Shown here: piece after piece, positions 1-34,714 of the stretch
Layout of the letters: every line of letters starts with the position of its first letter
Numbering within the stretch: position 1 is the first letter of the stretch
Assembly: GCA_030581615.1 (NCBI GenBank)
Contig: JAKTTT010000019.1
Span: forward strand, 186,001-250,000
Length of the DNA stretch: 64,000 nt
Direction of reading: 5' to 3'
From: Alloascoidea africana
Lineage: Eukaryota > Ascomycota > Alloascoideomycetes > Alloascoideales > Alloascoideaceae
Made by a program: the position numbers and the translations under genes
Notes under the pieces: model-generated
Told to the model about the DNA's origin: nothing
What the model saw: the letters and a program-made list of their open reading frames with translations, nothing else
The model's database searches: none

Positions 1-434
1 TATAAATGTGCTGGTCTTCTTCTATATGTTCGCCATTGATTCTTTTTATTTGATAATGCCCCAGGTAATGGTTATTATGTTGATTATGAATCATGAAATG
101 AATCCCTTCAAAGAAGTTATCAGCTATTCATTTGGCTTGGCACTTTTGGGTCACCCAAATCTCCGATTTTATTCTCTTTTAATATAGTCACCCTGGAGTA
201 ACATCAAGTAAGATATGTTTACTGAAACGGAGAAATTCTGTAAACTTACAGGTGTCCGTAGTTCCATTGAAATACAATTGAGACCCTCAACTTTTTGGTC
301 TGTTCATATTTGACCAACCACCACTTTTCCAAGTAGAGTTACACCCATACACCTTTCTTCATCACCTATTTTCCCGAGAGACGATTTGGGAATTGGACGA
401 GAGAAGATCTCTCTTTTGTTCAAATTGAGAAATC
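1..434. other. 5' flank and promoter of the YTA12-like gene
   Basis: AT-rich non-coding sequence running off the window edge. It holds one strong motif, a Rap1-type element at 341-353 (listed separately). The last 80 bases before the start codon are purine/pyrimidine mixed leader. No other gene is visible here. Confidence 0.6.
341..353 (+). promoter_or_regulatory. Rap1-type site
   Basis: ACACCCATACACC matches all 13 positions of the Saccharomyces Rap1 consensus ACACCCRYACAYM. It lies 82 bases upstream of the YTA12-like start codon, a plausible activator distance. Whether Rap1 acts as a promoter factor in this lineage is unknown; Tbf1 can take that role in other yeasts. Confidence 0.4.
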
Positions 435-3185
435 ATGTTCAATTTCATGGCAAGCCAGAGAAATGGCATACCCCGGCTGATAAGCCGCAATGTTCCAAGG
501 CCAATGTGGATAAGTACAGGAAGCTTAATGAAGTTGAGTAGTCCAAAGCAGCGCTTAAATCCAACAGAAGCAAGATGTTCTCCTCAAGGAGCTTTTACAA
601 GCATCCGGACACTGAGCACCACACGGGTCGTCTCATTTCAAACCGGAATCAAGAACTATAGACATGTGGATAAAGGCTTTAAGCAAGGAAGAAGGAAGAG
701 TGGCGGTAATAAACGACCCGAGAAGAGCGGTTTAAATGAAGAAGAAACACTAAAGGAAATCGATTCGCTCCCTCAACTATCTACGTTGAACGACAAACAG
801 CTCAAGGATAGCTTTCTCAAGTATACCATTCAAGCATTAGAGATGTCAACAGTTGAAGAGGATCACAAATTTGCAAAAGTTGTTCGGGAATTAATTGTGA
901 AAAATCCTGACGATTTTGCCTCCATTGAGAACGATATTCGAGAATACTATAAAAGTCGTGGAGGTCAGGATATTCCTCTTGGTATTTCTTCTGATAAATT
1001 TGGAATTGTAATCCATTATAAAGGTGTTTACGTTGTCCCGAATTTTACTTCTGCGATGCATTCGGCTGTATATGTTGAGAAAGTTAATGCTACACTACGG
1101 GGTCTTATATTCGAAGGATTGGACCGAGGCGCTGTTAAGCCATTATCTTATGACATGCATAACAAAAATAAAAGCAATGAAGAGCAACAGGGAGATAAAG
1201 AAGAAGACTCATCATCCAAATCCAAGGATAATTCAAAATCCTCAAAGAATGAGCCTAAGGTGGCAACTGTAAAGTTTGAGCCTTGGACATTTTACTTTGG
1301 ACTAGCAACATACTTTTACATTTCTTATTTGTTGTCTGGTGACAGTGCAAGGGAAGTTTCTTGGCAAGAATTCAGAACCTCGATGTTGGATAAGGGAATT
1401 GTAGAAAAGATTACTATCGTCAACAAGAGCATTGCTCGTGTTACATTGACTGATGGCAGTCAACAGCAAGGAGGCATTCCATTTTTCACTATTGGATCTG
1501 TGGAATCATTTGAGAGAAAATTGAAAGAAGCTCAAGATGAGAATGGTACCCCTTCGAGTTTCAGAGTTCCAGTTAGCTATGAACAAGAAGGAAGTATCAT
1601 TAGGATTGTATACCAGCTCTTACCAACAATCCTGCTTATTGGTGGTCTTTTGTATATCACAAGGCAATCTGTTGGAGGTGCAGGAGGGAATAGCATATTC
1701 AACGTTGGCAAAAGTCAAGCTAAAAAGTTCAATCAAGAAACTGATGTCAGCGTTGCCTTTAAGGATGTAGCAGGAATGCAAGAAGCAAAGGAAGAAGTCA
1801 TGGAATTTGTCAGTTTTTTGAAGAATCCTTCAAAGTATGAAAAGTTGGGTGCTAAGATCCCACGCGGCGCGATTCTTTCGGGTCCCCCAGGAACAGGAAA
1901 GACGCTTTTGGCCAAGGCTACAGCCGGTGAAGCCGGTGTGCCTTTCTACTCAGTTTCAGGATCGGAGTTTGTCGAAATGTTTGTTGGTGTAGGTGCAAGC
2001 CGAGTTCGTGATTTATTCAAGACAGCGAGAAAGAATGCACCGAGCATTGTGTTTGTCGATGAAATCGATGCAATTGGTAAAGCTAGAAGCAAAGGCAACT
2101 TTGGAGGTGGTGGAAATGACGAAAGGGAAACGACGTTAAATCAGCTTCTTGTTGAGATGGATGGATTTTCAACTACTGATCATGTTGTGGTTCTGGCAGG
2201 CACAAATCGACCGGACGTTTTGGATCAAGCGTTAATGAGACCGGGTAGATTTGACCGACACATTTCTATAGATAATCCAGATGTGGAAGGAAGGAAGGAG
2301 ATCTTTGCTGTTCATCTACGAAAGATCAAACTGAAGGGCCAAATTGAAGATTACGAAGGAAAGCTTGCAACATTAACACCAGGGTTTTCGGGAGCCGATA
2401 TTGCTAATTGTTGCAATGAAGCTGCTCTCATTGCCGCCCGAAATGAAAATGATTATGTGGAATTGCGACACTTTGAGCAGGCCATTGAGCGTGTTATTGG
2501 AGGATTGGAAAAGAAATCCAAGGTTTTATCACCTGAAGAGAAGAGAGTAGTTGCATACCACGAAGCAGGTCATGCTATATGTGGATGGTTTTTTCAGTAC
2601 GCTGATCCTTTGCTAAAAGTTTCAATTGTTCCTAGGGGACAGGGTGCGCTTGGCTACGCCCAATATCTACCTGCGGATATTTATCTGCTTAGTGTTCAAC
2701 AGTTGATGGACAGAATGGCAATGACATTGGGTGGTCGTGTTTCAGAAGAGATTCATTTTGAATCAGTTACAAGTGGGGCAAGCGATGACTTCAAGAAGGT
2801 GACGAAAATGGCTACGGCAATGGTTACAAACTTGGGCATGAGTGAAAAGATTGGACTCGTGAACTTTGACCAAAGTCAGCAACAAACGCTAACAAAGCCT
2901 TTTAGCGAGGAAACTGCAGAACAAATCGACGAGGAAGTGAAAAAGATTGTTGATGCGGCTTATGAAAGATGTAAGAACTTACTGGTGGAGAAGAAAATAG
3001 AAGTTGGGTTAGTTGCAGAAGAACTTTTATCAAAGGAGGTCATCACGAGGGAGGACATGATCCGCATATTGGGAAAGCGCCCGTTTACTGAAAGAAATGA
3101 TGCCTTTGAAAAGTATTTTACAAAACCCAATGGAGACGATGAGCTAGGGGACAATACTCAGGATGTTTCGCCTACAGCGTCTTAA
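435..3185 (+). CDS. YTA12: mitochondrial m-AAA protease subunit (YTA12/AFG3 family)
   Basis: Membrane-bound ATP-dependent zinc metalloprotease of the mitochondrial inner membrane. With its partner subunit it degrades misfolded inner-membrane proteins and matures mitochondrial proteins. Seen: 916 residues, intronless. An Arg/Ser-rich, acid-poor N-terminus fits a mitochondrial presequence. A hydrophobic segment lies near 285-302 and another near 389-409, flanking an intermembrane-space domain. The AAA module has Walker A GPPGTGKT (about 483), Walker B VFVDEIDA (about 540) and an arginine-finger region ([12 protein letters not shown]). The zinc-protease motif HEAGH is near 708. The linker ([19 protein letters not shown]), the LTKPFSEET stretch and the [12 protein letters not shown] tail resemble Yta12 more than Afg3 as I remember them, so paralogue assignment is moderately sure and family assignment is certain. 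Somewhat longer than Yta12 (825), through a hydrophilic N-terminal insert. The second Met (447) is an alternative start. Confidence 0.93.
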
Positions 3186-4465
3186 TTGTTCAGCAGTTCG
3201 TTAAACATGAGAGCGATAATGCCCATATTACTTTCGAAAAGTGTAAATACAGAATAGTTTTAAACCTTCCATGCTTTCTGTTGTTTATAGATAGGAAGGG
3301 AAAAAGATATTGATAGCAATTTAGCTATATTCATAAAATCTCAGTTTTTTATACCTGCTTCTGAAGAAGTGTGTATTGGTTATCATGTGGATCAAACCGA
3401 CACACAAAAACTAGATTCCAGAGAAATATAACAGTCAACGTGGTTTGCTTAGGATATCAAAAAAAACGAGCTAGGATCATGTTTCACAAAGTTTGGTGAT
3501 GACATGGAAGTATTCGGAACTGAATTTTTTTCTTGTCTTCCGAGGCTAGAGAAAAGAACCTCCAGAGGTTACAGATGGGCTATGTGCCTCAAATAGATTC
3601 ATTCTCTCATGAAGGATAGTGACTCAGTAATTGCTCAATCTATCTAAAAGTTGTAATGAAACAACAACACTTGGAATCTTAGGGTGAGCACATACTGAGT
3701 CATTTGGTGGGTGGTCAGTGCAGTATTAGACTTTGAGACCTTAAAAATGGTTGATGAAGCCATACTGGCTTCATTGCGGCCCTGCCGCTACCACCACCAT
3801 TAACTTGTCCATGTCTCAGTCTTGGAAATGCTTTACAATTGAGTCATTGTCTTGTTTTGGTTTGCAATAGGATCGGTGAAAAGTCAGAAGAGCTTTGCTC
3901 CAGCGGTGTCTTTGTGGAGGTCATCGGAGTGATCACACTAGTAAAAGCAAGTTACATTCTCTACTAAGGATAATTTTATTTAAATCCTAGAGAACCTGAC
4001 ATACAGTAAATCATTGGTGTTCCGACAATCACTAGGAACAAACAATCATCCCAATATCGAGCATTTGGACAGATTTTTCAGATGATGTGTTCCTGGTCTG
4101 TTAAGCTTTTTCGTTATGCTCTTTAAAAGTGCGTGTGTCATTTTAATACATGATGACTCCTCTTCTTCGGGAATCCTATTCTTATTTTCTACTCAGAGCG
4201 ATTTTTCTAGCGACAGCTGCAACCGATCGACGATAGCGATATTTTACGACTGATATACACTGGAATAGAAAATTCACACATTATCAATCTCCGATCTACA
4301 CAGGGACGGAAGAGAAAAAGTCGGAATCCCGGAGAATTGAGCCTTCGGGACCTGCTTCATCCGCGGAGCATGTGACTCGGGCCCGCGACCCCTCGTGGGC
4401 GCAACGAGCGCTGTAATTATATAATCAATTATCTAAGATTAAATAAAGTGGGTTGATCGGACGCA

Positions 4466-4540
4466 GCACCCGGTGCGAAGCCCGTTTTGGTCAAATGCCG
4501 CGCACCGGGTAAGACCACTAGTAGGAAAGAGCCGGGTGCG
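4466..4540. promoter_or_regulatory. triple CACCCGG/CCGGGTG element in the AAT1 promoter
   Basis: Three related elements lie within 75 bases: a near-perfect palindrome GCACC-C-GGTGC at 4466-4476, CGCACCGGG at 4501-4509 and GCCGGGTGCG at 4531-4540. They sit 120-200 bases before the AAT1 start. The spacing and GC contrast suggest a protein-binding cluster; the factor is unknown. Confidence 0.4.
4505..4512 (-). promoter_or_regulatory. Reb1-type octamer (CCGGGTAA) upstream of AAT1
   Basis: Complement of TTACCCGG, the Reb1 general regulatory factor core. It lies 150 bases upstream of the AAT1 ATG. It is one of five such octamers in the window, all intergenic and near starts. Confidence 0.5.
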
Positions 4541-4573
4541 TATAGTCCAGAAAAAGACCCATCCACCACTTTT

Positions 4574-4579
4574 TATAAA
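4574..4579 (+). promoter_or_regulatory. TATA box of AAT1
   Basis: TATAAA within TTTTATAAATG, 84 bases upstream of the AAT1 start codon. This is a normal TATA-to-ATG distance for yeast. AAT1 also shows strongly biased codons, in line with high expression. Confidence 0.55.
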
Positions 4580-4662
4580 TGTCTGGATTTCCGCCCACAA
4601 TCATTGATCTCCTCCCACCTTCTTCTCTTGTTTCCAACTAGACATTTGGTTTCTGTTTCGCT

Positions 4663-5934
4663 ATGCTCCGCACACTTACCACCAAGAACGTTCGATCGTC
4701 CTCTCGACTCCTCAGTTTACTGGCTAGACATGAGTCAACCTGGGCCGGTGTCAAATTAGGTCCCCCAGATGCAATTCTTGGAATCACTGAAAACTTCAAG
4801 AAGGACACATTTGCCCAGAAAATTAACCTAGGTGTTGGTGCTTACAGAGACGACCAAGGAAAGCCTTACGTTCTTGCTTCTGTTAAGCAGGCAGAGAAGA
4901 ATCTCCTTGCAAAGGACTTGGATAAGGAGTACGCAGGAATCACCGGTATTCCTTCCTTCACAAAAAAGGCTGCAGAGCTGGCTTACGGTGCTGAGTCCAC
5001 CCCCCTGTTGGAAAACAGAATCGCCATTACCCAGACCATCTCTGGAACTGGTGCTCTTAGAGTCGGTGCTGAGTTTTTGAACAAGTTCCTCCCTTCAAAG
5101 ACAATTCTCTTGCCCACTCCTTCATGGGCCAACCACAATGCCGTTTTCAAGGCTGCTGGTCTGGAACCTGCTTCTTACAGATACTACGATAAGAAGACCA
5201 TCTCCTTGGACTTTGAGGGCCTGGTCGAGGACTTGCAGAAGGCTGCCGACGGAACTGCTGTCTTGCTCCATGCATGTGCCCATAACCCAACCGGCGTTGA
5301 TCCAACTCCAGAGCAATGGCGCAAGCTGAGCGAAGTCATCAAGGCCAAGAAGCACTTCCCATTCTTCGATATGGCTTACCAGGGCTTTGCTTCCGGTGAC
5401 GCAGCAAGAGACGCCTATGCTGTCAGATACTTTGTCGAGCAGGGACATCAGGTTGCCCTTTGCCAGTCCTTTGCCAAGAACATGGGATTGTATGGTGAAC
5501 GTGTTGGCGCATTTTCTCTGGTTGCCCAGGACCCAGAAGAAAAGGCCAGAATCGAGTCTCAGTTGAAGATTGTCATTCGACCAATGTACTCCAACCCACC
5601 TATTCACGGTGCTCGTATCGCCTCTGAGATTTTGAACGATCCTGCTCTCAACCAGCAGTGGCTTGATGATGTCAAGGGTATGGCCGACAGAATGAACGGT
5701 GCACGAAGCTTGCTCAAGCAGAACCTTGAGGCTCTTGGTTCTAAGAAGGATTGGTCCCACATTACCAGCCAAATTGGTATGTTCTGCTACACCGGATTGT
5801 CTCCTGAGCAGGTTGACACTTTGGCCAAGGACTACTCTATCTACTTTACCAGAGATGGCAGAGTTTCCATTGCTGGAATCACCACCGGTAACGTTGAGTA
5901 CCTTGCCAAGTCCATACACGCTGTTACCCAGTAA
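4663..5934 (+). CDS. AAT1: aspartate aminotransferase, mitochondrial
   Basis: PLP-dependent transaminase that interconverts aspartate + 2-oxoglutarate with oxaloacetate + glutamate; part of the malate-aspartate shuttle. Seen: 423 residues, intronless. The N-terminus ([20 protein letters not shown]) is basic and acid-free like a mitochondrial presequence. The substrate loop [16 protein letters not shown], the conserved [16 protein letters not shown] segment and the Schiff-base lysine in [14 protein letters not shown] (about residue 270) are intact, as is the C-terminal RVSIAGI region. Full length for the mitochondrial family. Codons are strongly biased (GGT, GTT, AAG, TTG). The first ATG is taken; the presequence would be lost with any later Met. 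A long antisense reading frame across this gene is a by-product of the codon bias. Confidence 0.95.
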
Positions 5935-20982: not shown

Positions 20983-23051
20983 TTAATCTTCCTCTTCCTC
21001 TTCCTCTTCCTCTTCATTACCATCATCGCCTGTACTCTTGACGTTCCATTGGCATGAAATATCCCATCTACTACCAGGAGCACTCCTACTAATATACTTG
21101 ACAAATTTCAAAACTCCAGAATCTCGTAGAACCAACGTCATTCTGTTCCATGAAGCTTGGGATGTCAACAACACTGGATCATCCTCTTCTTCTTCTTCTT
21201 CATCCTTGTCCTTTGTATCGTTATTTTGTCCTGCCGCTGCGGCGGACCTTTTGCTCAGTGAAGATCGGTAAACTGCTGGATCATCATTCTCATCCTCATT
21301 CATCGCCATACATAACTCATATCCGCCCAATTCACCAGTTTCCCAACCTTCACTCGGTGTAGCCAAGAAGGTAGCCTCCAAGATCGCATCCAACATGTCA
21401 TTGTCATCATGTTTACCCTCGCCAGTTTCCGTCGTTGTTGCGAGACTAAAATCAAGACCCGGTCTAAAACGTCGAATAAGAATTTTATCCGATACGGGGA
21501 TGAGACCACTCACCAGTACAAGCCATTTTCTAAAAGCTGGAGATTTGAAAAAACAGGCCACTTCAGAAAGCGCTTTAACAGTGACATCGTCCTGTTCATC
21601 AAGAGTAAGAGATTCCAAATCGGGGAGCTCCAAGTTACCATTTCCAGATGTCTTTTCTTGTTCCTTTAATTTTTCCAACGCTTCAACCGATCGATCCTCT
21701 TTCCCCAAACCATCGATATACATGTATCTATATTTATGGGGTGGCACTGCAAGTTTCCAAGGATATACGACTTCTTCCGATGTTTGTGGGGTTCTTTTCG
21801 ATTCTGCTTTAAGTATTGCTCTTTTCAACTGTTTTGCATAGTCTTTATTTAACAAATTGTCAAGTTCCAACATTGAGGTTTCGGAAAATATGTTATTCAA
21901 ATGTTTGATTTGTTGTGTTGAAATTAAAACTGGATTTAAAAATTTGGATAGAATTTCCAATTCATCTGGAGATAACAACGATTCCTCTGGTTTGGCAAGT
22001 TCCAGTTCAGACTCCAATTTTGAAACTTGATCTTGTGGAATTTTGTTCAAAAACGGTTTTGGAAAATCAAAATGTTGAAGTTCTTTCGATTGAAGTTGTT
22101 GTAATGAACTTCTAGCCTCTGTTTCCTCCTGCTCTCCTTCAATAAATCCATCTTCACCCGGTTGAGGAATATGAAACCATCCCTGTATAGACATTCTATT
22201 TGTGTCGATATAAACCTCCTCAACATCATGGAAACTCACACCAGGTTGAACTGTGAAAAAGGCCAATTGGTTGAATGCTGGTGGACACACCAAAGTCCAA
22301 TCCGGCTTGGGGACATTTGGAATCATATTTGGATATAGTCTTAATGCACCTCCCCATCTAGTCTTCCATGGTTTATCTGGAGGAGGTAAATAAAGAATAT
22401 AGGAAATTCTTCTTGATCCAATGACATCGTCATGTGTTAACAAATGACATCCTTTCGAATACGTATTGATACTCATATCTTGTTTAACACCACTTAATTT
22501 TCCCGCTCCTGTAACAAATGTCATAAAATCCCGAAATTCTTGTGAATATAATGCTTGTCTTAATTTATAAATGTTTGGTAACAATTTCAATTCGGATTCA
22601 TCCAATCCGGATAAATTTGCCAAATCTCCAGTTTGGAAAACTTTATAAATATCGGTTTCCTTTTTCGTGAAATGGATATTTGCAAGAATCTCCTCTCTTA
22701 CATTTCTCAATAATGTATCGTCCATCAACTTTGGAATAACTCCATGTGGATATCTAACCATCCCCTGAAGTGTTAGTTTACGTTTACCCCCATGAACCAA
22801 GAACTTTGTAAAACTTACGGCTTGGATTCATTAATCTGTTTTTTCAACTCATCTTTATACCCATCAAACAACCCAGGATGGAAACAGTTTTTGATATTGT
22901 CAGGAACATGTCCCGCAGAGTTCTTTTTGGACATTTCGGAAACAACAGGCTCCTCTGCTGGTCTTTTAGAATGAATTGCTTCAGTGTCTTTATTAGCCGC
23001 CGCCGCTGATGGTGATGATGATGTGGCTGGAATTTGCACATCCGTAGTCAT
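20983..23051 (-). CDS. TPA1: 2-oxoglutarate/Fe(II) oxygenase Tpa1 (Ofd1 family)
   Basis: Prolyl 3-hydroxylase-type enzyme acting on ribosomal protein uS12 (Rps23); linked to translation termination and poly(A)-bound mRNPs. Exons 22819-23051 and 20983-22753, intron 22754-22818 (donor GTAAGT, branch ACTAAC, acceptor TTAG). The junction gives NESKP-YPHGV, and the 667-residue product compares with 644 in S. cerevisiae. Seen: the iron ligands in LLTHDDVIGSRR (HxD) and the distal His in SFHDVEEV, with the 2-oxoglutarate-binding Arg in RMSIQGW, at about 150-285. A second, degenerate oxygenase-like domain follows, then an acidic poly-Glu tail. A CAG only a few bases after the branch site is skipped in favour of the later TAG, which alone keeps the frame. 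Confidence 0.93.
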
Positions 23052-23426
23052 CTTGTTCCGGTCTATTTATTCAAACTCTCTTTTCTTTTTTGTCTTGTCT
23101 TGTCCTGACTCAATTGAATTAATAAAATTGATAAAATATGGGAATCGCTTGGAAAGAACTAAAAAGGGGCTGAAACAGTGAAAAAATTTTGAAATCTCAA
23201 GTTCGAACTGATTTTTTTTTGCGTAGTCAAGTGGTCCGATGCTTTTTTTTTCAAAAGTACTGCCGATGCTGCACACCCCGTAACCTACAAGAACTACGTC
23301 ACCCGGCCACATGCTTAGTCTTTATACTTGCACACCCCCTTGAGAAAACTGGAGGGGGGCGACCATTCTGCTGACTATCTGTTCGAACATCGGGTCGTCT
23401 GCCAGCCTACGGGTTAGCGGGTTTGG

Positions 23427-23434
23427 TTACCCGG
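23427..23434 (+). promoter_or_regulatory. Reb1-type octamer TTACCCGG upstream of TPA1
   Basis: Exact TTACCCGG, 376 bases upstream of the TPA1 start and directly next to the first hairpin. Confidence 0.45.
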
Positions 23435-23456
23435 CAGAGTATTTTTTTATACTCTG
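23435..23456. repeat. short perfect inverted repeat with T-rich loop
   Basis: CAGAGTAT and ATACTCTG are perfect inverted copies separated by six T. First of three consecutive hairpins. Confidence 0.85.
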
Positions 23457-23457
23457 G

Positions 23458-23586
23458 AGCCTTGATCAGTTTTTTTTTTTCACACGTCCATTTCTTTTTG
23501 AACGTGGATCAGCGCTGGGCTTGGATCCACATTCAAAAAGAAATGCATGTGTTAAAAGACTTTGCGAAAAAGAACAGATCAAGGCT
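23458..23586. repeat. long imperfect inverted repeat 1
   Basis: Inner arms 23481-23510 and 23524-23553 (30 bases each, 26 matching) around a 13-base loop. Outer arms add AGCCTTGATC and a T/A-rich stretch pairing with the sequence up to about 23586, with an unpaired bulge of about 12 bases on the right side. Total stem of roughly 50 paired bases. Confidence 0.85.
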
Positions 23587-23731
23587 GCTAATATTTGGGC
23601 TGAACCTTTTTTTGATTTTGAGCCATTTCCTTCAGCAGGAAGATCCTCAGGCACAAGTCTTGTTATGGGCGTTATGTTGCGGATCATGTGTTTCACGCAC
23701 ATATAATGGCCTCAACCAGGAAATACTTCGG

Positions 23732-23850
23732 ACACCTTTGTCTTGATCAGACATGAACACCATTGATTTGACATCTTCCTCGCTCATGACATCCAAGAAC
23801 GAGGAAGATGTCAAATAAATGGTGTTAATGTCTGATTAAGACAAAGGTAT
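23732..23850. repeat. long imperfect inverted repeat 2
   Basis: Arms 23732-23782 and 23800-23850 (51 bases each) match at 47 of 51 positions after reverse-complementing, around a 17-base loop. One of the four differences would still pair as G-U in RNA. Unrelated in sequence to inverted repeat 1, which lies 146 bases away. Confidence 0.92.
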
Positions 23851-25587
23851 CATTATTCCTAAAAGAAATTCCAATTAGAAGCCATTAGGAAAGTAGTTTT
23901 AAACGGTTGAAACCTTCATACATACAATCGCCAAAATTTGATGTTTTATGTATATATATGTATATATATTCCCCAAATCAAGCAGCTGTTAATAGAAAAT
24001 GTTGATTATAAACATTTGGAAGTATACCTTATATTTTAAACAAGTTTAAATAGTGACTGTTCTGGTGTAATGGGGGGAAAACTACATCTTTGGTTGTTTT
24101 CTACCTTTTAGAGCTTTTCACGATAATATCTATTTGAATTCAAACTCAAAGAATACTAATAATTATATGGAAATGTTCAGCTCAAAACTCTCTTTCTATG
24201 GATAACTTATCGGAAAATTCAAAATCGGTTTGTGACAAATTTTGGAAGCTAAATATCATCCTAGATTATAGAACTAACACTTAAAGAACAACCTATTCTG
24301 AATAATTGTACAACCTACTATCCAAATTTGTACCATTATATATCATTTTAAAGTAAAAACTTTGAGAAATCTTTTAATCTAATCAGCTTTCTTTTTAAAA
24401 GTGATGGATTGCTTTTTTTGCTGTTGTGTTTCCGACTCAAGTCGGTACTTTAAACGTTTTGAGATAGCGCCTATCTATGTGATGAAGCTGGATCTTAACA
24501 CAAGTTGGCCTGCCCTTTTTTCCCAAAATCAACACAATTTGAACGGTTAAGGCTTAACTGGTATTAAACTACGTATACTTATTCTTGTTTGATGCTAAGC
24601 CATGTATTTCTGGTATATTTATTGGGATTCCATGTTTTAGTACTATATGCAACACCCAGATCTTGTTTAAAGTCCCCAAATCTCTACCCTAAAGCTTTAG
24701 TGATTACATTTCTATTCAAAATGATAAGCAAATTTTTGGATCTCATATCCACTCTTTGATTGCAGTTCACAGTGGCGTGAACCAGTGGAAAATCAAACAA
24801 ATCATTCAGGTACCGGTTGTAATATGGTGAGGTTGCCCGGTATTATTGAGCGAGGGGGCGCGACGACGGGACATGCAGGTTGGTACAAGTCACAGGCTTC
24901 CTTTCACTTTTTTGTTCCCGCTGAATTGTAAACATCCATACACCAACCCCCTCCCCTTATGCAAGAATTATGTATTGCGACTGACCTGTCTTTCTGTTTC
25001 TGATAACGATTATGATGTCCTTTTTGTTATGTAATTCGTTGAATAGTCTCTGACAATTGTGCTTTTATACATAGTCTTTGTGAAGAGCATACGCAGCTTG
25101 GGATTAGCCCATGATTCAGAACGTTCACATTGCTTAGACAATTGAGAATGGATACAGTTGGTCTCAATCAATTAACTGGAAAAACTCCTTTTGTACAAGT
25201 CTAGATTCAACCAGATCTACTCGAGAAAAAACTGAAATTAGTTAAAGCAAAGAAAATCAGAGATTCCTTTCTAATTTTTAATGCAAATAAAAGTATATAC
25301 GTGTACCGTCCATAGATATCAGACCAAAAAAATGGGATATGAGAATGAAGACGAAGTAGAAAGGAGTACTTTTTCAATTACCACAAAACAAAACAAAACA
25401 GAAGCAAATTCAATGAAAAAAATCAGATCAAATCAAATCAAAGCAAATCAGAGCAGACCAAATAAAACCATATTATTATTAATGCGAAAATTTTCCAAAT
25501 AAAAAGAAAAAGAAAAAGAAAAAAAAAGGGTAACAAAAGTAGTTCAGTTTTCTCCTCATTTTTTTTGATCAACTCTTGTTATCAGTG

Positions 25588-28500: not shown

Positions 28501-29318
28501 TCCCAGTTTGGTTAGACTCCTTGTTCTTGGTGAGCAATTTAAATTTCGGGATGAAGTTGAAGTTGGTAATGCATCAACAATGCAAAATTGCTGTGGATCC
28601 TGGGTGAAAGCACTCTTCCCAAGTTTTGCTGTGAAAATTCTTCGAGTTTGTGCCAGTAATGAGAGGGCACTGCTCTCTCCCAGATATCGTAAATGGCCAC
28701 CTTTATCATACAACAGTCTTGTATTTTCACCGGAACCTTGCTGCTGTACATTGTCGCTTTCACTTTTCCGCTTCTGCATTGTTGGCAAATTCTCTTGAGG
28801 AGCAAGATCGGACAGAGAATTGAGGGTTTTGGACTTTGTGGATATGGGGAAGGAAAGTAGAGGTTGTAGACTTGGGGGGATATAGCTCTCTCCAGCACCG
28901 CATCCAGCAGCAGTATTGCAAAGCTTTGAGTTTATATAAGACGAATCCAGGGGAGGATGTGCCAATCTTTTGTCGAACCCAGTGTAGACACACTCAAAGC
29001 CTTTATTCTCACAAAGTAGGCATGGGTGCTTTCCATCGCACTGGCAAGAGGGAGGAAAGGTTTTAAAGTTAGAAAATCTTGCAAATTCATTGTTCCAGTT
29101 TCAGGATACAATTAGCCTTATCTCACTTTTTGCTTCCGGCGCTTGCAAGTATCGCAGGCTCTGGCTATGCGCTTTCTCTTCTCGTCAGGCACCACCCGCC
29201 GCTTCTTGGGATAGACAGCCGCATCGGCAGTGCCAGCGGCAGGGCCAGCGGCAGCGGGCGGTCTCTTCACACAGGCCTGGGACTCCAGCTTCATCGTTCT
29301 GCTGAGGACCACCACCAC
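25588..29318 (-). CDS. Zn2Cys6 fungal transcription factor
   Basis: Fungal binuclear-zinc-cluster regulator. Exons 29127-29318 and 25588-29040, intron 29041-29126 (donor GTGAGA, branch TTCTAAC, acceptor CCAG). The intron cuts the zinc cluster between KRRKQK and CDGKHP; splicing yields exactly C-x2-C-x6-C-x5-C-x2-C-x6-C, so the splice is certain. Product 1214 residues. A fungal-specific TF domain follows (about 250-430; YFLIFVYYQMTTRRNASWVNLGIAVRYALALGLSRR and RRRMWNALYVNDR). The long C-terminal third is Asn/Ser-rich and probably disordered. Start: Met at 29318, or the in-frame Met at 29294 (MKLESQ). Exon 1 is markedly GC-rich, part of an island shared with the sirtuin gene. The target pathway cannot be named from sequence. 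Confidence 0.9.
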
Positions 29319-29930
29319 ATCGACAGAGTGGTGGTGTGGTGAGCGGCAAGAGAAAGAGTATTTATGAACCGAGGCGGCAGATCGCTGTCCGTGCGCTATC
29401 CGATCAAATCTGATAAGCTGCGGCCGGGTATCTGCTACCCGACATCCACCCGCGCACGCACCCCCTGTAAGGTGCGCCGGGGGCCGCGCGCACTTAGACT
29501 ACCAAGGTGCGCCGGGGGTGTGCGCGGCCCGCGGCACGAACGAGCGGCCAATCACAGGCTCCAGCGCCACCGGCAGCCACTGCGCCGCGTCGCCAGCAAA
29601 CACCCAGCCGCCCGCAGCCTCGATCTGCAGCCGCGCCTGCGGGCCCACGTCCGTGTTGAAGACCGCGACCCGCCCGCCGCGCGCACGGACCCGGTCCACG
29701 TACCCGGCCGCGGGCCACACCGAGCAGGATGTGCCGACGACCAGCACGAGGTCGACCGGCCCACGTGACTCGAGAAACGCGTCGGCGCGGTCCATCGTGC
29801 GCAGCGGCAGAGGCTCGCCGTACCACACGACGCCCGGCCGCAGCAGCCCGCCGCACTCGGGGCACCGGGGCAGGTCCGGGTCCGCGACCTGCTCCAGCGG
29901 GGCCTCTTCTTCTTCATCATCATCATCACC
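29150..29930. other. GC-rich island across two genes
   Basis: Composition rises to about 65-75% GC from exon 1 of the Zn2Cys6 gene, across the intergenic gap, through the 3' half of the sirtuin gene. On both sides it returns to the AT-rich background. Includes a CGGGTA-TCTGC-TACCCG hairpin near 29426-29442. Confidence 0.7.
29469..29518. repeat. 15-bp direct repeat around the sirtuin stop codon
   Basis: AAGGTGCGCCGGGGG occurs at 29469-29483 and 29504-29518. The second copy codes the last residues of the sirtuin, the first lies just past its stop. Looks like a local tandem duplication. Confidence 0.85.
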
Positions 29931-30794
29931 ATCTTGTTCTGGCTCTTGTTCTGCTGCTGGGCGGTGGATTCGCTCGTTCGCCAGCGCCGGCACCAGCGGC
30001 TCGGAAAAGTCGTTCTCAATCGTCGTGTTGCAAAAGAACTCGGTGCACTTCATGCTGAAGAGGTCCCCGTGGAGGTGCAACAACGCCTCCTCCGGGTGCC
30101 TGGCCCTCGTGCTCAGCCCATCCACGTTCTGCGTCAGGGTCAAAAAGCCCACGTCCTGGTCCTCTTCGGGTCTCGAGAACCGTTTTCGATCTTGATATCG
30201 TCTGGCCAATTCCGCTAGGGCGTAGTGTCCTACATTCGGCTGAGCCCTAAGAGCCTGCGTTCTCCTGTCGGCGTAAAACTGCCAGACAAGGCCCGGATTC
30301 AGCCTGAAGGCCTCTGGCGTGGCAATGTCCGCGGCGTCGTAGTTCTTCCACAATCCGTTTGATCCGCGAAACGTGGGCAGCCCTGAGGACGCAGACAGTC
30401 CAGCCCCTACAAGTGCAAGCACCTTCTTGCAAGAAAAAAGGTATGATTGAAAGCTTTCCAGGTCCGAAGAGTTCGATATCATCGTCTGTGTGGGATGGCG
30501 GGGTACACGAAGTCTCGTTATTCGTCGTCTACGTTTATATCCGTTCCGGCTGATTTCATCCTCATCCATACTGTTTGTACTATCATCATCGCTCGAGTCT
30601 TCATCTTCGGAAAAACTTTTAATAGAGATGCTATCATCACTGTCAATGTCATCCTCTTGTAAGATACTCCTCTGGGGTTGTGGGTGGCGATGGTTCTCTG
30701 CCAAGTCCTCCTCCTCCGAGATGGATTCACTGAGACAGCTTTGCATTTTCTCTTTGATCGAGAGAGTCGTGTGTGGTTGGTTGGTCTCCGACAT
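29499..30794 (-). CDS. class III (SIRT5-type) sirtuin
   Basis: NAD-dependent protein deacylase. Seen: 431 residues; NAD loop GAGLSASSGLPTFRG (about 130), TQNVDGL, catalytic His in LHGDLFSM, zinc Cys pairs in MKCTEFFC and PRCPECGG, then GVVWYGEPLP and VVGTSCSVWPAAG. WQFYADRR supplies the Tyr-x-x-Arg pair that in SIRT5 and CobB reads acidic acyl groups, so desuccinylase/demalonylase activity is likely. The S. cerevisiae sirtuins (Sir2, Hst1-4) belong to other classes. A 120-residue Asp/Glu/Ser-rich extension precedes the core and an acidic insert (DGDDDDEEEE) sits between the zinc pairs. No clear mitochondrial presequence. The 3' half is extremely GC-rich (about 75% in 29521-29580) against a 40% background, and a 15-base direct repeat brackets the stop. 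Lateral transfer is possible, but the GC island continues into the next gene. Confidence 0.9.
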   Translation of the reverse strand: MSETNQPHTTLSIKEKMQSCLSESISEEEDLAENHRHPQPQRSILQEDDIDSDDSISIKSFSEDEDSSDDDSTNSMDEDEISRNGYKRRRRITRLRVPRHPTQTMISNSSDLESFQSYLFSCKKVLALVGAGLSASSGLPTFRGSNGLWKNYDAADIATPEAFRLNPGLVWQFYADRRTQALRAQPNVGHYALAELARRYQDRKRFSRPEEDQDVGFLTLTQNVDGLSTRARHPEEALLHLHGDLFSMKCTEFFCNTTIENDFSEPLVPALANERIHRPAAEQEPEQDGDDDDEEEEAPLEQVADPDLPRCPECGGLLRPGVVWYGEPLPLRTMDRADAFLESRGPVDLVLVVGTSCSVWPAAGYVDRVRARGGRVAVFNTDVGPQARLQIEAAGGWVFAGDAAQWLPVALEPVIGRSFVPRAAHTPGAPW

Positions 30795-33259: not shown

Positions 33260-34714
33260 ATGGTATGCTTTGTTATAGTTTTGGAACATTCTTACAAACA
33301 ATTCTATTAACAAAACAATTTTTTTGTGAATTGTTAAAAGGGAAAAGAAAAGACACATGTGAATGTCGTTGTTATTGGTCATGTTGACTCTGGCAAATCC
33401 ACAACTACAGGTCATTTGATCTACAAGTGTGGAGGAATTGATAAAAGAACCATTGAAAAGTTTGAAAAAGAAGCTGCAGAATTGGGCAAAGGATCTTTCA
33501 AATATGCCTGGGTATTGGATAAACTGAAGGCTGAACGTGAGCGTGGAATTACAATTGATATTGCACTTTGGAAATTTGAAACTCCAAAGTACTACATCAC
33601 TGTTATTGATGCTCCTGGTCATCGTGATTTTATCAAGAATATGATCACAGGTACTTCTCAAGCAGACTGTGCCATTCTGATTATTGCTGCCGGTGTGGGT
33701 GAATTTGAAGCTGGTATTTCAAAAGATGGACAAACTCGTGAACATGCACTTTTGGCTTTCACTCTTGGTGTAAGACAATTGATCGTGGCAGTGAACAAAA
33801 TGGATTCTGTTAAATGGTCCGAGTCCCGGTTTAATGAAATCCATAAGGAGGTTGCAAACTTTATCAAAAAAGTGGGATATAATCCAAAGACTGTTCCGTT
33901 TGTACCAATATCTGGTTGGAATGGTGATAACATGATTGAGGCATCCACCAATTGCCCCTGGTACAAGGGCTGGACCAAGGAGACTAAGATTGGTTCTTAT
34001 AAAGGTAAAACATTGTTGGAGGCAATCGACTCTATTGAGCCTCCTTCTCGTCCTGTTGACAAGCCTCTCCGTCTGCCTTTACAAGATGTCTACAAGATTG
34101 GCGGGATTGGAACTGTTCCTGTTGGTCGTGTTGAAACAGGATCAATCAAAGCCGGCCAAATTGTAACATTTGCTCCCCCTGGTGTGACCACTGAAGTCAA
34201 GTCTGTCGAAATGCATCATGAACAATTGATCCAGGGCGTCCCAGGCGACAATGTGGGATTCAACGTGAAGAACGTGTCTGTTAAAGAGATTAGACGAGGG
34301 AACGTTTGTGGTGATGCGAAGAACGACCCACCAAAGGGTTGCCAATCGTTCAACGCGCAGGTTATCGTGCTAAATCATCCGAGTCATATCTCTCCTGGGT
34401 ATGCACCTGTCCTTGATTGTCATACTGCGCATGTTGCCTGTCGGTTTGATACTCTTTTGGAAAAAATCGACCGTAGAACAGGCAAGAAGATTGAGGACAA
34501 TCCAAAGTTTGTAAAATCAGGAGACGCTGCTATTGTGAAGATGATTCCATCCAAGCCAATGTGTGTTGAAACTTTTGCCCAATACCCGCCTCTGGGGAGA
34601 TTTGCTGTTCGTGATATGAGACAAACTGTAGCTGTTGGCGTTATCAAGAAGGTTGAAAAAGTTGAAAAGGCTGGTAAAGTTACCAAAGCTGCACAAAAGG
34701 CTGGCAAGAAATAG
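33260..34714 (+). CDS. TEF1: translation elongation factor EF-1alpha (eEF1A)
   Basis: GTPase that brings aminoacyl-tRNA to the ribosome. The open frame lacks its usual first residues; they are restored by an intron directly after the start codon. Exon 1 is only ATG (33260-33262), intron 33263-33340 (donor GTATGC, branch TATTAAC, acceptor AAAAG), exon 2 begins GGAAAAGAAAAGACACAT = GKEKTH. The spliced protein is 458 residues, exactly the S. cerevisiae length. G motifs: [21 protein letters not shown]; all three domains are present (domain [22 protein letters not shown], domain [15 protein letters not shown]). CTG codons stand at conserved Leu positions (ILIIA; RLPLQ), evidence for the standard code. 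It ends in a typical Lys-rich tail. Confidence 0.97.

What the first reader, a model, noticed from the sequence alone, without database searches (positions are those of the whole stretch)
23435..23850. Run of three hairpins, including a 51-bp stem, upstream of TPA1
Three inverted repeats lie within 416 bases: an 8-bp perfect one, a stem of about 50 paired bases (23458-23586) and a 51-bp stem with 47 matches and a 17-base loop (23732-23850). The two long stems are unrelated in sequence, so this is not one duplicated element. No transposon-like ends or coding remnant is seen. Some budding yeasts that keep Dicer (for example Naumovozyma castellii) make siRNAs from long palindromic transcripts; a locus of this shape is a candidate source. 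Alternatives: palindrome growth by template switching during replication, MITE-like insertions, or a structured 5' UTR/ncRNA.
Basis: partly seen in the sequence, partly recalled or inferred. Interest (0 to 1): 0.75.

Follow-up and report, generated by a model that had tools for sequence, protein, structure and literature searches.

The report
Folded-back jumping-gene remnant in RNAi yeast
The two long hairpins are pieces of a broken Mutator-type jumping gene copied back on themselves, in a yeast that also carries an Argonaute gene and possible Dicer genes, so such scars could make small RNAs against a surviving copy of the jumping gene, though this has not been shown.

Summary
The hairpins are real (23458-23586 and 23731-23851) and far above shuffled controls. 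Its 5,528-bp relative on contig C14 has 33-bp terminal repeats, a perfect 9-bp target duplication and a 531-aa MULE transposase frame. Both stems hold inverted duplications of transposase-gene pieces. Of five remnant loci found besides C14, three (window, C11, C15) carry long fold-backs; C15 has perfect 96-bp arms and a 34-nt exact match to the C14 element. The genome encodes an Argonaute with a complete D-E-D-D set and three Rnt1/Dcr1-family RNase III proteins with two dsRBD matches each, two with intact active-site motifs; which of them dices is unresolved. The build resembles maize Mu killer and N. castellii palindromic siRNA loci. Origin as fold-back MULE scars is close to certain; silencing RNAs are plausible but untested, and a neutral repair scar explains the sequence at least as well.

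The parts
23280..24922 (-). Whole MULE derivative, reversed relative to the C14 element (el 1-5528 = C14:28785-34312). The outermost 20-45 bases on each side are degenerate traces of the ends; no clean terminal repeat or target duplication was found.
   Evidence: Outer limits read by eye from the sequences printed (GTAACCTAC at 23280; AGCGGGAACAAAA down from about 24922).
23326..23478 (-). MULE right end (el 5419-5268), 92% identical to C14; 23326-23422 is 96% identical to the C15 copy
23435..23456 (.). 8-bp perfect inverted repeat inside the MULE right end; incidental
   Evidence: imperfect in C14 (alignment)
23458..23586 (.). Hairpin 1: inverted duplication carrying el 5288-5248 joined to el 3739-~3718 (the left side runs on to el 3700 through the loop), within the transposase codons DPSSALIYIQKEM. 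Arm-to-arm alignment shows the el 5248|3739 junction in both arms, so that deletion came before the inversion
23594..23802 (-). Transposase-gene fragment (el 3433-3217), 79% identical to C14, sense on the minus strand. The protein search also marks window 23586-23747 (C19:209586-209747; 69% identity, one TGA inside) and 23728-23811
23731..23851 (.). Hairpin 2: arms 23732-23782 and 23800-23850, 47/51 paired, 17-base loop; the right arm is an inverted copy of el 3231-3285, the transposase segment around VFMSDQDKG
23843..24902 (-). MULE left end / region before the transposase frame (el 1171 to el 41): 84% identical to C14 over 966 columns (23866-24824), 76% over 74 columns (24838-24902), weaker at 23843-23865; joined to hairpin 2 at the shared AAAGGT
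20983..23051 (-). Neighbouring gene TPA1 (uS12 prolyl 3,4-dihydroxylase): 592-aa frame 20983-22761 plus an apparent N-terminal exon starting at 23051 and ending at a GTAAGT donor-like sequence. The MULE remnant begins about 230 bp upstream of 23051
   Evidence: the joining of the exons is inferred

Best explanation
The locus is a fold-back scar of a Mutator-like transposon. Shown: a MULE copy related to the 5.5-kb C14 element lost most of its middle, and at two places a stretch of what remained exists again in inverted orientation, giving two hairpins that hold transposase-gene pieces, between the kept MULE left region and right end, upstream of TPA1. Inferred for origin: template switching during replication or gap repair of the element. 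Inferred for function: when transcribed (from the kept MULE left region, or by read-through), the RNA folds into duplexes of about 50 bp that an Rnt1/Dcr1-family RNase III can cut and Argonaute can load, so that this locus and its C11 and C15 counterparts act, or acted, as Mu-killer-like silencers of the MULE transposase mRNA.
For: Transposon origin: piecewise matches of window 23326-24902 to the C14 element in one orientation, with the second arms matching in the opposite orientation. C14 has a 531-aa frame with MULE (E 1.7e-12) and Transposase_mut (E 2e-12) domains, terminal repeats matching at 28 of 33, and a perfect 9-bp duplication TTAAATAAA. Recurrence: of the five loci other than C14 that the transposase search found (C19 = window, C11, C15, C8, C7, a lower bound), three carry long fold-backs; C15 was found by protein search, not by a hairpin query, and has perfect 96-bp arms with a 14-base loop. 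In the 12 sequences scanned (142,011 bases, 2,501 of them counted twice) all four inverted self-matches of 50 bits or more within 800 bp lie in these three loci. Machinery: Argonaute with D736, E776, D808, D960, each column identical in 120 of 120 homologues aligned; two RNase III proteins with RNase_3_N, NERLEFLGDS intact and two dsRBD matches. Targets: 22-mers of the element matched with at most 1 mismatch: C15 35, C11 18, hairpin 2 8, hairpin 1 4; exact: C15 13, C11 2, window 0. In N. castellii palindromic loci gave 74.1% of siRNA reads (PMC7528652, passages).
Against: No RNA data of any kind. The window stems have no exact 22-mer match to the C14 element (longest 17 and 16 nt), so today they would be weak guides against it. 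No sign of selection: three of the four stem-2 mismatches are changes in the right arm without compensation, the fourth is ambiguous; the C11 arms have decayed to 67% identity. The C2 RNase III matches RNase III / Ribonuclease 3 structures (7dey, 5t16, 4oog; E 6e-43 to 2e-40) better than K. polysporus Dcr1 (3rv0, E 1.1e-26), so it may be the Rnt1 counterpart; C35 and C6 were not put through that search. Two of five remnant loci (C8, C7) have no fold-back, though they are fragments. The hairpin background was sampled in about 140 kb, part of it chosen for this family. The element-wide DNA search did not complete, so the number of MULE copies without fold-backs is unknown. In C. albicans, loss of AGO1 did not raise transposon transcripts (PMC11047096, passages).
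Confidence: 0.4

Rival explanations
1. Neutral scar: the fold-backs are by-products of faulty repair or replication of a transposon (template switching at short shared sequences after excision or at a stalled fork). They are not transcribed or diced to any effect and are decaying.
For: Both return junctions lie at short shared sequences: AAAGGT in the window, AAGCT in C11. Hairpin 1 carries an older deletion junction in both arms. Arm identities of about 90%, 67% and 100% look like different ages of unconstrained decay; changes in stem 2 are not compensated. The sequence needs no function.
Against: Does not by itself predict that the hairpins involve the transposase gene in three of three fold-back loci, or that the genome keeps an Argonaute with complete active-site residues; neither excludes it.
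Confidence: 0.5
2. Mobile fold-back element: one fold-back MULE derivative arose once and was itself mobilised by the C14-type transposase; window and C11 copies are sisters.
For: Window and C11 share the order left region, antisense arm, loop, sense arm of the same transposase segment, with the left region resuming at el 1171 and el 1129, and share substitutions against C14.
Against: Junctions and loops differ; over 50 shared columns some differences group arms within a locus and some across loci: unresolved. No clean terminal repeat or target duplication in the window copy.
Confidence: 0.06
3. Structured 5' leader or ncRNA of TPA1, selected as an RNA element.
For: The stems lie about 400-800 bp upstream of the apparent TPA1 start, on its strand.
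Against: No Rfam match at gathering threshold in the window; nearly the whole stretch is accounted for by transposon segments; no compensatory change seen in stem 2.
Confidence: 0.04

Closest known systems
Mu killer (Muk) of maize
   Same: A rearranged, internally deleted Mutator-family element with an inverted duplication of part of the transposase gene, proposed to give hairpin RNA and small RNAs against the master element (PMC3440606, start of abstract and passages).
   Different: Muk has ~1.3-kb halves and two copies of the same terminal repeat; here the arms run from 51 bp to about 280 bases at three loci, with right-end and left-end sequence at the window locus, in a yeast. Silencing is shown genetically for Muk, nothing is shown here. 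The same paper ties silencing to short antisense transcripts and disputes the read-through model, so the long-hairpin step is a proposal even for Muk.
Palindromic siRNA loci of Naumovozyma castellii
   Same: Inverted-repeat loci giving hairpin transcripts in a budding yeast with Argonaute and Dcr1 (PMC7528652, passages).
   Different: siRNAs are sequenced there, not here. The passages seen do not say that those palindromes derive from a transposase gene.
Mutyl, the MULE of Yarrowia lipolytica, and Hop of Fusarium
   Same: MULEs of ascomycetes; Mutyl has imperfect 22-bp terminal repeats and both have 9-bp target duplications (PMC5014426, passages; PMC6446971, passages).
   Different: The C14 transposase had four homologues at E <= 0.001 among 7,995 scored candidates, all from Acer (plants), best 32% identity over 24% of the query; Mutyl itself was not compared. 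The passages seen describe no fold-back derivatives of Mutyl.
RNAi of Candida albicans (Ago1, Dcr1, inactive Cdl1)
   Same: One Argonaute plus active and inactive Rnt1/Dcr1-family RNase III paralogues (PMC11047096, passages); here two active-looking and one degenerate.
   Different: In the passages seen, sRNA clusters there are mainly at subtelomeric TLO genes, with much smaller peaks at transposons, and transposon transcripts did not rise without AGO1.

Membership tests
MULE (C14 element) | MULE/Mutator transposase domain | tested here: met
   PF10551 48.1 bits (cut-off 27.6), PF00872 47.1 (cut-off 21); SWIM 18.6, below its cut-off 19.6
MULE (C14 element) | Terminal inverted repeats and 8-11-bp target duplication | tested here: met
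   33-bp ends, 28/33 identical; 9-bp TTAAATAAA on both sides
MULE (window copy) | Own terminal repeats and target duplication | tested here: not met
   Only degenerate end traces; the 22-base probe with up to 6 mismatches hit the window twice, at 902 and 41771, not at this locus. Filed as a remnant by homology to C14
Mu killer-type silencer | Inverted duplication of transposase-gene sequence in a deleted Mutator derivative | tested here: met
Mu killer-type silencer | Both ends derived from the same terminal repeat | tested here: not met
   Window has right-end and left-end sequence
Mu killer-type silencer | Hairpin or antisense transcripts, small RNAs, silencing in trans | not testable with these tools
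   No RNA data
Budding-yeast palindromic siRNA locus | Long inverted repeat above chance | tested here: met
Budding-yeast palindromic siRNA locus | Argonaute in the genome | tested here: met
   One Piwi-domain gene, PAZ and Piwi over their cut-offs, D-E-D-D present
Budding-yeast palindromic siRNA locus | Non-canonical Dicer (Dcr1) in the genome | tested here: inconclusive
   Three RNase_3_N + RNase III + two-dsRBD proteins, two with intact motifs; C2 fits RNase III / Ribonuclease 3 structures better than K. polysporus Dcr1. Dcr1 versus Rnt1 role not resolved
Budding-yeast palindromic siRNA locus | 22-23-nt Dicer-dependent siRNAs | not testable with these tools
   No small-RNA data
MITE | Short element, many similar copies, intact terminal repeats | tested here: not met
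   A query of window 23430-23860 matched only C19, C14 and C11 in the own genome (which skips very common words); no clean terminal repeat in the window copy. The end-to-end element query did not complete

The most novel reading that the evidence does not exclude
A natural Mu-killer-like defence outside plants: in this budding yeast, fold-back derivatives of a MULE arise repeatedly by template switching, and those that duplicate the transposase gene feed the RNAi machinery and hold the one intact-looking MULE found in check, with C15 as the current trigger and the window and C11 loci as ageing ones.
Probability: 0.28. Interest if true: 0.82.

Novelty: new variant of a known kind. Interest (0 to 1): 0.62.

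Why it matters
How a cell first recognises a transposon as foreign is an old question. Mu killer in maize is the example I know for this superfamily (recalled) of an accidental inverted copy acting as the trigger. Three loci of similar make in one yeast with an Argonaute gene would let that be tested in a single-celled organism, and would suggest one possible source for the palindromic siRNA loci of budding yeasts.

Tried and rejected
Rfam scan of the window: no match at gathering threshold. tRNA scan: none. The 9-base motif CTTGATCAG shared by the outer ends of both stems: three matches in the window, 7 of 100 shuffles reach that, so not telling. The 8-bp repeat as a part of the feature: rejected, it lies in the MULE right end. 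Whether window and C11 fold-backs share one origin: 50 shared columns, conflicting signals, left open. Naming the species: TPA1's best hit is an unnamed contig at 76%, listed named yeasts lie near 50-56%; the Argonaute's best hit is unnamed and its closest named relatives are two yeasts at 41%; CTG aligns with leucine as the commonest residue at 3 of 6 CTG positions, the other 3 being mostly gaps. A budding yeast, species unnamed.

Literature on fold-back transposase loci in RNAi yeasts: none seen, judged from listed titles and abstract starts only: 15 listed of 1,098 holding at least four terms; 13 of 13; 10 of 54; 15 of 59; 1 of 1; 10 of 20. The library is open-licence papers only, and passages were read in six papers.

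A broad random sample of the genome for background hairpins was planned and could not be drawn; the background is the 142,011 bases scanned (window and 11 of 40 loci; L001-L008 and L011-L031 were not scanned).

Full report
WHAT IS THERE. The stems are real and at the stated places. Stem 2 is 51 bp with 47 matches and a 17-base loop; the stem-1 region folds with 51-53 pairs by strand. Folding z-scores are -14.9 and -9.3. As inverted self-matches within 800 bp they score 142 and 83.3 bits, against a maximum of 63.5 in 100 block shuffles of the window and 36.5 for the next best real match.

WHAT IT IS. The own genome (G000, 23.18 Mb in 138 contigs, window = C19:186001-250000) has relatives of the hairpin region on C14 and C11. 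On C14 lies a 5,528-bp element, C14:28785-34312, with 33-bp terminal repeats matching at 28 of 33 positions and a perfect 9-bp duplication TTAAATAAA. It holds a 531-aa frame with MULE and Transposase_mut domains over their cut-offs and a SWIM match just under its cut-off. Below, el means a base of this element; the frame is el 2806-4401.

The window carries the same kind of element in reverse, rearranged. From 23326 upward: el 5419-5268 (92%), hairpin 1, el 3433-3217 (79%), hairpin 2, then el 1171 to el 41 (84% over the main 966 columns, 76% over the outer 74). Hairpin 1 holds el 5288-5248 joined to el 3739-~3718 in both arms, by arm-to-arm alignment, so that deletion came first and the inversion afterwards; the left arm has since lost nine bases that the right arm and C14 keep. 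Hairpin 2's right arm is an inverted copy of el 3231-3285, the codons around VFMSDQDKG. By eye this looks like the second catalytic aspartate motif of MULE transposases; that reading is recalled, not computed. After hairpin 2 the sequence resumes at el 1171 through the shared letters AAAGGT; in C11 the matching return is at el 1129 through AAGCT. That is what template switching would leave (inference).

NOT A SINGLE CASE. The transposase search gave 15 matches on six contigs: C14 itself, and C19 (window), C11, C15, C8 and C7 (the tool calls such counts lower bounds). Three of the five remnant loci carry long fold-backs. C11:324038-324602 folds el 3177-3475 with arms 67% alike (218 pairs). C15:261423-261628 has perfect 96-bp arms and a 14-base loop; one arm matches el 4340-4403, the end of the frame, the other lies in a stretch matching el 4443-3996. 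C8 and C7 are fragments without fold-backs. In the 12 sequences scanned (142,011 bases, 2,501 counted twice) the only inverted self-matches of 50 bits or more within 800 bp are the four in these three loci. C11 was found with a query containing the hairpins, so it is not independent; C15 was found by protein similarity, without a hairpin query.

MACHINERY. One Piwi-domain gene, C28 (1002 aa), with PAZ and Piwi over their cut-offs, best PDB match KpAGO (E 8.3e-98). D736, E776, D808 and D960 are each identical in 120 of 120 homologues aligned; that they form the slicer tetrad is recalled knowledge. RNase III: five genome matches. Three of the five were examined (C2 745 aa, C35 599 aa, C6 634 aa): each has an RNase_3_N domain and two dsRBD matches, which I recall as the layout of budding-yeast Dcr1. 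C2 and C35 keep NERLEFLGDS and the later FEAY; C6 does not and looks inactive, like Cdl1 of C. albicans (PMC11047096, passages). Against a clean Dicer call: C2, the only one compared with the PDB, fits 7dey, 5t16 and 4oog (RNase III / Ribonuclease 3, E 6.2e-43 to 2.3e-40) better than K. polysporus Dcr1 (E 1.1e-26). Which of C2 and C35 acts as Rnt1, and which dices, is not resolved; in C. albicans one protein does both (PMC11047096, passage).

HOW IT MOST LIKELY WORKS. Shown: fold-back MULE derivatives with transposase arms; an intact-looking MULE; an Argonaute and Rnt1/Dcr1-family genes. Inferred: transcription on the minus strand from the kept left region, folding, dicing, loading, cutting of MULE mRNA. 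Guide strength differs: 22-mers of the element matched with at most one mismatch are 35 for C15 (13 exact), 18 for C11 (2 exact), 8 and 4 for the window stems (none exact). So C15 would be the strong present-day trigger and the window locus a weak or former one. Against function: no RNA data; three of four changes in stem 2 fall in one arm without compensation; C11 has decayed; in C. albicans transposon transcripts did not rise without AGO1 (PMC11047096, passages). A neutral scar fits the sequence at least as well, and I rate it somewhat higher.

COMPARISON. Mu killer of maize is a deleted MuDR with an inverted duplication of mudrA (PMC3440606, start of abstract and passages). The likeness of build is close, but the ends differ and silencing is untested here, so this is 'works like', not 'is a'; the same paper links Mu killer's silencing to short antisense transcripts rather than read-through hairpins. 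N. castellii palindromic loci gave 74.1% of siRNA reads in the wild type (PMC7528652, passages). I saw no description of fold-back transposase loci in RNAi-bearing yeasts in the listings or the passages read.

LIMITS. The element-wide DNA search was sent 19 times and never answered, so the copy number of this MULE, with or without fold-backs, is unknown. C14's transposase gene may have further exons upstream (frames at L009 1408-1863 and 1898-2314); whether it is active is unknown.

Noticed in passing
L039 1746-3650 (C6:123245-125149): Third Rnt1/Dcr1-family RNase III paralogue (634 aa, RNase_3_N, two dsRBD matches) with a degenerate active site (GLVFFGRS where the others have ERLEFLGDS), like the inactive Cdl1 of C. 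albicans.
   Followed up: partly
L009 2591-4186 (C14:31590-33185): Very divergent MULE transposase: four homologues at E <= 0.001 among 7,995 scored candidates, all from Acer, best 32% identity over 24% of the query.
   Followed up: partly
L010 1514-1705 and 4231-4467 (C11): Small frames with weak transposase-type helix-turn-helix matches, all under the Pfam cut-offs: perhaps other transposon debris at the C11 locus.
   Followed up: partly
window 20983-23051: TPA1 seems to have an N-terminal exon starting at 23051 and an intron with a GTAAGT donor near 22818; the plain ORF list misses this exon.
   Followed up: partly
window 29300-30300: The SIR2-family gene at 29499-30794 lies partly in a G+C-rich island: 62-69% G+C at 29300-30299 against 33-39% just beyond 30550, with several long overlapping frames on both strands.
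   Followed up: partly
C14:33769-33808 and 33839-33878: Two direct 40-bp repeats, 92.5% alike, in the C14 MULE after the transposase frame.
   Followed up: no
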